Positions 51,847 to 53,411 of a stretch of 64,000 bases of DNA are shown in pieces. Position 1 is the first letter of the stretch, and the number at the start of each line of letters is the position of its first letter. Below the pieces are notes generated by a model that saw only the letters and a program-made list of their open reading frames with translations, had not been told where the DNA came from and did not search any database. The stretch spans positions 2,554,685-2,618,684 of the forward strand of contig NZ_JADDXR010000002.1 of assembly GCF_015330125.1 (NCBI RefSeq). The letters run 5' to 3'. The stretch is from Zobellia nedashkovskayae. GTDB lineage: Bacteria; Bacteroidota; Bacteroidia; Flavobacteriales; Flavobacteriaceae. The position numbers and the translations under genes were made by a program.

Positions 51847-53244
51847 TTATATAGTTTCAGCTATTTTCAAAGCTTTGGTAAGTGCGCCCAATTTGTTATA
51901 AGTTTCTTGCAGTTCATCTTCAGGGTTTGAGGCAGCGACAATACCTGCACCTGCTTGGTAATGCAACTGGTGATTTTTACTTAAAAATGTACGAATCATA
52001 ATGGCGTGATTAAAATTGCCATCAAAATCCATAAAACCAATGGCGCCGCCATAATAACCGCGACTGGTTTTCTCGTATTTTTCAATAAGCTGCATGGCCA
52101 TGTGTTTTGGTGCACCGCTCAAAGTACCTGCTGGGAAAGTATCTGCCACTACTTTCATGGTAGGGATATCTTTCTTCTTTTTCCCCATTACTTTTGATAC
52201 CAAATGAATAACATGAGAGAAGAACTGTACCTCTCTGTAATTGGTAACCTCTACCATACTTCCGTTTCGGCTCAAATCGTTTCGGGCCAAATCAACTAAC
52301 ATTACATGTTCACTATTCTCTTTATCATCTTCCGTAAGTTCTTTTGCTAAGATGGCGTCTTGTTCATCGTTTCCGGTACGTTTAAAAGTTCCCGCAATAG
52401 GATGAATTTCGGCATTACCGTCTTTTACAATAAGTTGAGCTTCAGGAGAACTTCCAAATATTTTAAAATCGCCATAATCAAAGTAAAACAAATATGGGGA
52501 TGGGTTTACAGAACGTAGCGCTCGGTACACATTAAATTCATCTCCTTTAAAACCTTGAGAGAAACGGCGAGACAATACTAGTTGAAAAACATCACCGCGT
52601 TGGCAATGCTTTTTAGCTAACCGTACATGCTCTCTATATTCTTCATCCTCTAAATTAGAAGTGGCCTCGCCATCTAAAGTAAATTTATAGGAAGCAAAAG
52701 TGCGTACATCTAAAATATGAGCAATTTCGGTTGTGTTTTCTTCTGTGTTGAAGCAATGTGCAAAAATATAAGCTTCATTTTTCTGGTGATCTATTGCGAT
52801 GATATTTTGGTAAACCGCATAATAGATATCAGGAATGGAAACGGAATTGTCTTTTTTGCTAATTTTAACGTCTTCATAGTAACGCACGGCATCGTAGGCC
52901 ATGTATCCAAAAATACCGTTGTTTATGAATTTGAAATCACTTTCCTCAGCTTCAAATTTTTTGCTAAAATCATGAAGAACTTTTACTACGTCTGTGTCCT
53001 TAGTAATTTCTGTTTCATTGGAAGTTTGGTCAGGAAAGTGCTCAACAATAGTTTCGTTCTCAATTTTTATAGAAGCAATGGGGTTGCAGCAGATGTAAGA
53101 AAAACTATTGTCCGCCGCGTGGTAGTCACTACTTTCTAACAAAATACTATTCGGAAAACGATCTCTAATTTTGAGATAAACGCTTACCGGCGTGATTGTA
53201 TCTGCAAGAATTTTTTTGTGAAAAGATTTTAATTTGTACTTCAT
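51847..53244 (-). CDS. trpE: Anthranilate synthase component I
   Basis: 465 residues from the ATG at 53244 (MKYKLKSFHKKILADT); an upstream ATG at 53265 lies inside the attenuator hairpin and would be a poor start. Converts chorismate and ammonia to anthranilate. The tryptophan feedback site LLESSD is at 35-40, so inhibition by Trp is expected. The chorismate-binding core shows RRFSQGF, NPSPYLFYFD, SSPEAQL, PIAGTFKRTG and SGAPKHMAMQLI. First enzyme gene of trpEGDCFBA, preceded by a leader attenuator. Confidence 0.97.
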   Translation of the reverse strand: MKYKLKSFHKKILADTITPVSVYLKIRDRFPNSILLESSDYHAADNSFSYICCNPIASIKIENETIVEHFPDQTSNETEITKDTDVVKVLHDFSKKFEAEESDFKFINNGIFGYMAYDAVRYYEDVKISKKDNSVSIPDIYYAVYQNIIAIDHQKNEAYIFAHCFNTEENTTEIAHILDVRTFASYKFTLDGEATSNLEDEEYREHVRLAKKHCQRGDVFQLVLSRRFSQGFKGDEFNVYRALRSVNPSPYLFYFDYGDFKIFGSSPEAQLIVKDGNAEIHPIAGTFKRTGNDEQDAILAKELTEDDKENSEHVMLVDLARNDLSRNGSMVEVTNYREVQFFSHVIHLVSKVMGKKKKDIPTMKVVADTFPAGTLSGAPKHMAMQLIEKYEKTSRGYYGGAIGFMDFDGNFNHAIMIRTFLSKNHQLHYQAGAGIVAASNPEDELQETYNKLGALTKALKIAETI

Positions 53245-53264
53245 GTTGATAGTATTCAAATGCA

Positions 53265-53291
53265 AAAGGCTTGTCGTGATGACAAGCCTTT
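53265..53291 (-). terminator. Attenuator terminator of the trp operon
   Basis: On the minus strand AAAGGCTTGTC, loop ATCAC, GACAAGCCTTT, then one more T: an 11-bp perfect stem, 27 nt after the leader peptide stop and 20 nt before trpE. It would stop transcription before trpE unless prevented. A further TTTG occurs shortly after, so the U tract is short (about 4). Confidence 0.85.
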
Positions 53292-53318
53292 ATATAGTTT
53301 TACTACAATGATGCTAGC

Positions 53319-53375
53319 TCACGATATCTGTCGAGAGTTGTTCCACCACCAAGTATTTGAGTTATTTCTGTTCAT
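53319..53375 (-). CDS. trpL: trp operon leader peptide with three consecutive Trp codons
   Basis: 18 codons read MNRNNSNTWWWNNSRQIS, then TGA. Codons 9-11 are TGG TGG TGG (53351-53343). No tryptophan-rich peptide would be expected by chance here; three of 18 residues are Trp in a row, just ahead of trpE. When charged tRNA-Trp is scarce the ribosome would stall on the WWW codons and change the fold of the downstream RNA so that the terminator does not form. An ATG 21 bases upstream (53396) is in frame but precedes the promoter -7 box, so it would not be transcribed. The antiterminator partner is not obvious by eye. Confidence 0.88.
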   Translation of the reverse strand: MNRNNSNTWWWNNSRQIS

Positions 53376-53380
53376 TGGTC

Positions 53381-53411
53381 CAAATATAGAAATCATTTTT
53401 AAAACCACAAA
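53381..53411 (-). promoter_or_regulatory. Promoter of the trp leader and operon
   Basis: On the minus strand TTTG (53411-53408), a 19-base spacer, and TATATTTG (53388-53381). This is a full match to the Bacteroidetes -33/-7 consensus. The leader ATG begins 5 bases after the -7 box, so transcription would start at or almost at that ATG. Confidence 0.75.

What the first reader, a model, noticed from the sequence alone, without database searches (positions are those of the whole stretch)
53244..53411. trp operon leader: near-leaderless WWW peptide and attenuator in a Flavobacteriaceae
Read directly on the minus strand: a TTTG/TATATTTG promoter, an 18-codon frame with TGG TGG TGG at codons 9-11, a stop, 27 nt, an 11-bp terminator hairpin, then trpE 20 nt later. 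This is the classic layout of ribosome-mediated attenuation. It is unusual in that the -7 box ends 5 bases before the leader ATG, so the mRNA would have almost no 5' leader and no Shine-Dalgarno, yet must be translated promptly for attenuation to work. I could not find a clear antiterminator; only GACAG (53332-53328) with CTTGTC in the hairpin arm is a weak candidate. The mechanism could therefore differ from the E. coli one.
Basis: partly seen in the sequence, partly recalled or inferred. Interest (0 to 1): 0.78.

Follow-up and report, generated by a model that had tools for sequence, protein, structure and literature searches.

The report
Trp operon attenuator, Bacteroid-trp type
A marine flavobacterium carries in front of its tryptophan genes a tiny reading frame with three tryptophan codons and an RNA switch that probably shuts the genes off when tryptophan is plentiful; the family was named in 2010, and what is added here is the missing half of the switch and signs that the little frame starts at the very end of its messenger.

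Summary
In detail: promoter boxes, 18-codon leader with WWW at codons 9-11, TGA, 27 nt, 11-bp hairpin, 20 nt, trpE. It belongs with a known kind: Rfam RF01692 Bacteroid-trp, described in 2010. The window's copy scores 44.8 bits, cut-off 49; the 8 other genomes of the genus that were searched exceed it. All 110 trpE loci fetched by two searches carry leader and terminator. Here UCGUGA is complementary to the terminator's loop plus two bases of its 3' arm (UCACGA). Across 21 families own leader-terminator pairs fit better than swapped ones (p=5e-5), though the window's copy alone does not stand out. Ensemble folding with the ribosome masked at W10/W11, at the stop, or absent gives E. coli-like logic. 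Rfam's model stops at the terminator's 5' arm. Near-leaderlessness is plausible and largely clade-specific: 4-8 nt from -7 box to ATG in 75 of 108 loci. No transcript or expression data. Verdict: ordinary attenuation in a known family, with refined anatomy.

The parts
53408..53411 (-). -33 element TTTG of a Bacteroidota sigma-A type promoter
   Evidence: sequence; the -33 consensus is recalled, not tested
53381..53388 (-). -7 box TATATTTG, 5 nt before the leader ATG
   Evidence: a TAnnTTTG-type box upstream of the leader in 108 of 110 loci
53319..53375 (-). leader peptide frame MNRNNSNTWWWNNSRQIS* (trpL-like)
   Evidence: WWW or WW leader in 110 of 110 loci
53343..53351 (-). UGG UGG UGG, codons 9-11
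   Evidence: WWW in 108 of 110, WW in L030 and L098; start codon 8 codons upstream in 105 of 110 (whose script looked there first)
53331..53337 (-). region 1, CUCUCGA, pairs with UCGUGAG (1:2 hairpin, U-U mismatch)
53319..53324 (-). region 2, UCGUGA, overlapping the stop codon
   Evidence: (C/T)GTGA in 110 of 110; UCGUGA itself in 101 of 109
53293..53307 (-). small hairpin P2, UGUAGU-AAA-ACUAUA, between stop codon and terminator
   Evidence: folds; covariation not tested
53265..53291 (-). terminator hairpin (3:4) AAAGGCUUGUC-AUCAC-GACAAGCCUUU; poor U-tract
53274..53279 (-). region 3 core, UCACGA: last four loop bases plus two bases of the 3' arm, complementary to region 2
51850..53244 (-). trpE, first gene of trpEGDCFBA
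   Evidence: Pfam PF04715 + PF00425

Best explanation
This is a trp operon attenuator of the Bacteroid-trp kind. Transcription starts at or one base before the leader AUG and a ribosome loads on the 5'-terminal AUG (inferred). With enough Trp-tRNA the ribosome runs to the UGA, covers UCGUGA (region 2) and the terminator 3:4 forms, so RNA polymerase stops before trpE. With Trp-tRNA scarce it stalls on the UGGs and covers region 1; region 2 is freed and pairs with UCACGA in the terminator loop and start of its 3' arm, helped by weaker pairs to the 5' arm, so hairpin formation is delayed and the polymerase goes on into trpEGDCFBA. Without translation 1:2 forms in most copies and the terminator wins in the end. 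Shown: sequence, conservation, complementarity, predicted folds. Inferred: transcription start, ribosome positions, kinetics, tryptophan response.
For: Leader and terminator in 110 of 110 fetched loci and TGGTGG upstream of trpE in 13 of 13 further loci, 8 of them from other families. The leader stop starts 3 nt after the start of region 2 in 88 and 8 nt after it in 16 of 109. 2:3 pairs formed in 98.4% of cells. Swap test: 42 loci -14.86 own against -10.71 +/- 0.43 permuted, 0 of 2000 as low; one per family, 21 families, p=5e-5, the floor of 20000 permutations. Ensemble folding of 74 of 75 thinned leaders: stalled at W10 or W11, mean P(2:3) >=0.94 while 1-6 nt of the 3' arm are out; ribosome at stop, P(3:4) 0.84 at 4 nt; no ribosome, P(1:2) 0.87 before the arm emerges and P(3:4) 0.86 at 6 nt. 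Null: with the ribosome on W11 and 4 nt out, shuffled spacers exceed 0.9 in 20%, real ones in 100%. E. coli trp gives the same order of states.
Against: No expression or transcript data. For the window's own copy (L001) the pairing does not stand out: shuffle p 0.144, and 7 of 20 foreign terminators pair as well or better; and without a ribosome its best fold with 2 or 4 nt of the 3' arm out is 2:3, not 1:2. Within the family 2:3 hardly varies, so there is no covariation there (0 pairs changed on both sides); covariation is only between families, read by eye. Per-locus shuffles reach p<=0.05 in 16 of 42; L113, L114 (first leader), L116, L189 and L196 pair no better than shuffles. The own terminator ranks first in 6 and among the best seven in 15 of 21 families. 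1:2 covariation rests mainly on one pair, and a slid control scored higher. With 10 nt of the arm out the terminator wins in every state, so antitermination must be a matter of timing. The U-tract is weak.
Confidence: 0.85

Rival explanations
1. The same attenuator, but the leader is not leaderless: transcription starts further upstream, and translation starts at an upstream in-frame ATG (53396) or on a normal 5' UTR.
For: An in-frame ATG lies 21 nt upstream, inside the promoter region. 30 of 108 relatives have 13-30 nt between box and ATG. Leaderless mRNAs are only 5.5% in F. psychrophilum (PMC9723704, passage).
Against: The upstream ATG precedes the -7 box and most rows lack it. The 4-8 nt gap fills one clade (68 of 70 rows). 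That group lacks the A at -3 (3 of 53 with gap <=6, against 25 of 30 with gap >12), as expected if the bases before ATG are promoter and not mRNA.
Confidence: 0.2
2. The control is not by transcription termination: the hairpin with its poor U-tract mainly pauses polymerase, or sets Rho access or translation of trpE, with the leader ribosome acting on that.
For: U-tract UUUUGCAU; the terminator scan did not list it on the minus strand.
Against: 109 of 110 loci have >=5 U in the 8 bases after the stem core; trpE starts 20 nt beyond the hairpin and takes no part in the predicted switch.
Confidence: 0.12
3. The leader frame is a small protein or trans-acting leader RNA with its own role, as for S. 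meliloti peTrpL, and not mainly an attenuator.
For: Precedent in S. meliloti (PMC7298713, passages read).
Against: The peptide tail varies in sequence and frame while the RNA motif (C/U)GUGA does not.
Confidence: 0.05

Closest known systems
Rfam RF01692 Bacteroid-trp (Weinberg et al. 2010, PMC2864571; Table 1 passage seen)
   Same: Same place, phylum and length; full-model match 1-131, E 2e-4; 8 of 8 genus-mates pass the cut-off.
   Different: The window's copy is 4.2 bits under the cut-off. Rfam's model ends at GGCUUGUC, the terminator's 5' arm, so it has neither the whole terminator nor the UCGUGA:UCACGA antiterminator; its hairpin has 12 flagged non-standard positions here.
E. coli trpL attenuator
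   Same: Trp codons, three mutually exclusive pairings, same order of states in the same simulation.
   Different: Here region 2 pairs with terminator loop and 3'-arm start more than with the 5' arm (in E. coli the 5' arm: recalled); no Shine-Dalgarno and nearly no 5' UTR (inferred).
Sinorhizobium meliloti trpL / rnTrpL (PMC7298713, passages read)
   Same: Leaderless leader: the RNA starts with the ATG of a 14-codon trpL frame.
   Different: Alphaproteobacterium (recalled); no homology implied; its antiterminator was not compared here.
F. psychrophilum trp leader (PMC6414381, one passage read) and leader-peptide clues in its transcriptome (PMC9723704, passages and section 19 read)
   Same: Bacteroid-trp element upstream of trp, compared there to E. 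coli attenuation.
   Different: No antiterminator sequence named in the passages read.

Membership tests
RF01692 Bacteroid-trp | full-length covariance-model match upstream of trp genes in Bacteroidota | tested here: met
   1-131 of 131, E 2e-4, 53395-53281 minus
RF01692 Bacteroid-trp | score over the curated gathering cut-off (49 bits) | tested here: not met
   44.8 bits for the window; the copies of 8 of 8 other same-genus genomes searched score 51.0-64.5, over the cut-off. I therefore call it an ortholog of accepted members, not a formal Rfam hit
RF01692 Bacteroid-trp | Rfam consensus hairpin forms | tested here: inconclusive
   12 positions flagged as non-standard pairs
ribosome-mediated trp attenuator | short frame with tandem Trp codons before trpE | tested here: met
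ribosome-mediated trp attenuator | intrinsic terminator before the first gene | tested here: met
   11-bp hairpin, weak U-tract; not listed on this strand by the simple scan
ribosome-mediated trp attenuator | antiterminator exclusive with terminator and freed by a stalled ribosome | tested here: met
   in silico only:
ribosome-mediated trp attenuator | 1:2 hairpin that protects the terminator without translation | tested here: inconclusive
   mean P(1:2) 0.87, but covariation weak and the window's own copy prefers 2:3 with 2-4 nt of the arm out
ribosome-mediated trp attenuator | trpE read-through depends on charged tRNA-Trp | not testable with these tools
   needs an experiment
leaderless mRNA | transcription starts at or next to the start codon | not testable with these tools
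   box-ATG gap fits; no transcript data
T-box or riboswitch control of trp | match to a described RNA family of that kind | tested here: not met
   no such match at gathering in the window or at E<=5 around the leader

The most novel reading that the evidence does not exclude
Flavobacteriaceae trp attenuators switch by blocking the nucleation site of the terminator: the freed strand invades the terminator's loop and the first bases of its 3' arm instead of mainly its 5' arm, so it acts just before the hairpin can close; and in the Zobellia-Maribacter-Flagellimonas clade the whole sensor is a 5'-terminal-AUG (leaderless) frame, a solution to fast ribosome loading without Shine-Dalgarno that relatives solve with an A-rich 5' UTR.
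Probability: 0.55. Interest if true: 0.5.

Novelty: new member of a known kind. Interest (0 to 1): 0.36.

Why it matters
Bacteroid-trp stands in Rfam as a hairpin cut off at the terminator. The antiterminator proposed here gives it a testable switch and a reason for its invariant bases. The split between near-leaderless and A-rich-leadered copies of one switch is a natural experiment on how ribosomes that do without Shine-Dalgarno load in time for attenuation. Otherwise it is the textbook mechanism in another phylum.

Tried and rejected
GACAG with CTTGTC as antiterminator: GACAG in 16 of 110 loci. Other regulators: no T-box or riboswitch family match; TRAP-like binding sites were not tested. 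RNAalifold on the alignment gave only the terminator; I take it that 1:2 and 2:3 are left out because they exclude each other or the terminator. Covariation of 2:3 inside the family: none, the bases are nearly invariant. A second use of the switch in a genome: the pattern TGGTGG...CGTGA...CACGACA hit 139 of 199 genomes of the family, its reversed control 4 of 199; G000 has one hit, and in the listed rows paired forward hits are one locus shifted by 3 bases; the listing was cut, so this is not exhaustive. Of 23 ilvD hits I printed 7 upstream regions: G000's shows no leader that I would accept, L241 has an Ile-rich frame followed by a hairpin.

Rows left out or set by hand: L085, L116 and L172 got no terminator, and ten loci were skipped (L157, L163, L183, L185, L186, L192, L193, L198, L203, L204); L203 has TGGTGG at -160 and was not resolved. 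In one search the terminators of L114, L116, L145, L172, L197 and L201 were set by hand; L124, L125, L144, L146 (two leaders), L147, L182 (its nearer leader) and L206 were dropped as duplicates or mis-called hairpins; L085 stayed out. One search used 74 of 75 thinned leaders. In one search no -7 box was assigned for L061 and L109 (one search gave L109 a gap of 18).

Full report
What is there. On the minus strand of the window, TTTG (53411-53408) and TATATTTG (53388-53381) precede an 18-codon frame, MNRNNSNTWWWNNSRQIS, with ATG at 53375 and TGA at 53321-53319. After 27 nt comes an 11-bp hairpin with a 5-nt loop (53291-53265), and 20 nt later the ATG of trpE (53244). Pfam matches fit trpE, trpG, trpD, trpC, trpF, trpB, trpA in this order. 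The upstream neighbour is a YceI gene followed by its own hairpin with a T-run (53461-53423, read by eye), so the trp promoter seems to stand alone. The 132 nt fold better than each of 200 shuffles.

Relatives. Two searches with TrpE gave 110 loci (30, the best 80 of 346; the closest named one is Zobellia barbeyronii). They are the best TrpE matches, so they lean to this family, and they include near-duplicates (106 distinct proteins; 75 leaders after thinning). All 110 have a TGGTGG leader and the terminator and (C/T)GTGA within 30 nt of it; 108 have WWW, two WW. In 7 of them (L033, L070, L072, L076, L083, L093, L095) a GIY-YIG-like coding sequence lies between terminator and trpE (Pfam PF01541 tested for the L070 copy only); the long frame is open in L070, L072, L076 and L093 and shorter or interrupted in the other three. 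Thirteen further trpE upstream regions, 5 from this family and 8 from other families of the order, all hold TGGTGG. Of 83 upstream regions printed (order and phylum draws, some of them repeats of earlier loci) I accept a WW or WWW leader with terminator in 73 by eye; two have W-L-W (L157, L163); eight have none that I accept or resolved. TrpE itself was found at E<=1e-90 in 71 of 148 genomes of the order and 97 of 198 of the phylum.

The switch. In the family the bases after WWW vary, with two exceptions. UCGUGA or a one-base variant lies near the stop codon (UCGUGA in 101 of 109), whatever the reading frame: the stop begins 3 nt after its first base in 88 and 8 nt after it in 16 of 109. Its reverse complement UCACGA lies in the terminator: last loop bases plus first two bases of the 3' arm. 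I know of no need of termination itself for a conserved loop, yet here it is conserved. The pairing holds in 98.4% of cells, but the columns hardly vary, so the family itself gives no covariation. Between families the sequences do change and stay complementary. Read by eye: L111 UCGCGA with UCGCGA; L119 GCGAG with CUCGC; L114 UGCGGGA with UUUCCGCA and L117 UGUGGG with CCCACA; L115 and L122 GAGAAGC with GCUUCUC; L155 UGAAUCGG with CCGAUUCA; L166 GAUGAAC with GUUCAUC. In others, such as L168, region 2 pairs with the terminator's 5' arm in the usual way (CGGGGUUCUG with CAGAACCCCG). Test: the energy of each leader tail with its own terminator (5' arm, loop, six bases) against swapped terminators. 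Forty-two thinned loci: -14.86 own, -10.71 +/- 0.43 permuted, none of 2000 as low. One per family, 21 families: -15.76 against -11.91, p=5e-5, and the same p after removing row and column means. Against it: single-locus shuffles reach p<=0.05 in only 16 of 42; L113, L114 (first leader), L116, L189 and L196 do no better than shuffles; the window's own copy has p 0.144 and is outdone or matched by 7 of 20 foreign terminators; the own terminator ranks first in 6 of 21 families and among the best seven in 15.

Three states. For 74 of the 75 thinned leaders I computed ensembles with the ribosome's stretch masked and the terminator's 3' arm emerging base by base. Stalled with the A site on W10 or W11: region 2 pairs with region 3 at mean P >=0.94 while 1 to 6 bases of the 3' arm are out. 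Stalled on W9: 0.80 at 1 base, >=0.95 at 2-4, 0.78 at 6. At the stop codon: terminator 0.84 at 4 bases. No ribosome: the 1:2 hairpin 0.87 before the arm emerges and 0.67 at its lowest (3-4 bases), 2:3 at most 0.25, the terminator 0.86 at 6 bases. With 10 bases out the terminator wins in every state (0.90 or more), so antitermination must be a matter of timing. E. coli trp run with a matching mask and a generic measure shows the same order. Shuffling the spacer, with the ribosome on W11 and 4 bases out, drops the share of leaders above 0.9 from 100% to 20%. In the window's own copy the antiterminator is UCGUGA with UCACGA plus GC with GU and AGC with GCU around the small hairpin P2; without a ribosome its best fold holds 1:2 before the arm emerges and at 11 bases, but 2:3 at 2 and 4 bases. 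The 1:2 hairpin is the least secure part: 74% of cells paired, 18 of 19 both-side changes in one pair, and a slid control scored higher.

The 5' end. In 108 of 110 loci a TAnnTTTG-type box was found; the gap to the start codon is 5 nt in 47, 4-8 nt in 75, 13-30 nt in 30. In F. psychrophilum this box lies at -12 to -5 and leaderless mRNAs are 5.5% of those mapped (PMC9723704, passages). So +1 here would be the A before ATG. The short-gap group ends mostly in CA before ATG and has A at -3 in 3 of 53 (gap <=6); the long-gap group is A-rich, with A at -3 in 25 of 30 (gap >12). On a quick TrpE tree 68 of the 70 rows of one clade (support 92) have the short gap; 4 of the 72 short-gap rows lie elsewhere, and the label needs six changes. 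This is inference from sequence; no transcript start was measured. Leaderless trp leaders have a precedent in S. meliloti (PMC7298713, passages).

What is known. At Rfam's gathering threshold nothing is reported in the leader. With the E-value threshold the leader matches RF01692 Bacteroid-trp over the full model at 44.8 bits, cut-off 49. The 8 other genomes of the genus that were searched are over the cut-off, as are 26 of the 60 genomes of that search, and 7 of 20 sampled leader loci. The family comes from Weinberg et al. 2010 (Table 1 seen in PMC2864571: marked y for RNA, y for cis-regulatory, n for switch) and a later paper compares it to E. coli attenuation in F. psychrophilum (PMC6414381, one passage). 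A search for the family name gave three papers. The transcriptome paper reports strong clues for leader-peptide attenuation before amino-acid operons and names pheA and hisG elements (PMC9723704, section 19). The model in Rfam stops at GGCUUGUC, which is the 5' arm of the terminator, so the antiterminator's partner is outside it. I saw no paper that names this antiterminator in the listings; the library holds open-licence papers only, and supplements could not be read.

Verdict. A sound observation, ordinary mechanism, known family. What I add is the antiterminator, its loop-directed position in Flavobacteriaceae, its counterpart in other families of the phylum, and the largely clade-wise near-leaderless start.

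Noticed in passing
L033, L070, L072, L076, L083, L093, L095, between terminator and trpE: A GIY-YIG-like coding sequence lies between the attenuator and trpE in 7 of 110 loci (Pfam PF01541 for the L070 copy), with leader and terminator still present.
   Followed up: partly
L114 and L117 (same family f2): Two WWW leaders, each with its own terminator, stand in tandem before trpE.
   Followed up: partly
L210 (G000, upstream of hisG) and L226 (G000, upstream of pheA): Leader frames with His runs (MKNRTTHHHFHIHAQAR) and Phe runs (MTKQFFFSGFYFYFFFKRGMGLL) followed by hairpins; the his leader starts 7 nt after a TAnnTTTA box. A His-run frame was listed in 8 of 8 hisG loci printed, of 15 found.
   Followed up: partly
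window 53267-53256: The U-tract of the trp terminator is poor in the window and in its closest relatives L002-L010 (UUUUGCAU or UUUUCCUU) and in L034 (UUACUCAU), while loci with a long box-ATG gap have longer U-runs.
   Followed up: partly
L123: Region 2 lies in a second pair of Trp codons just before the stop, so the sensed codons may double as the antiterminator strand.
   Followed up: no
L185, L186: The sequence just before trpE reads as the end of trpB, so trpE is internal there and no leader stands before it (by eye).
   Followed up: no
Rfam RF01692, seen against window 53395-53281: The model ends in the 5' arm of the terminator; extending it should raise scores of missed members such as the window's own copy.
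   Followed up: no
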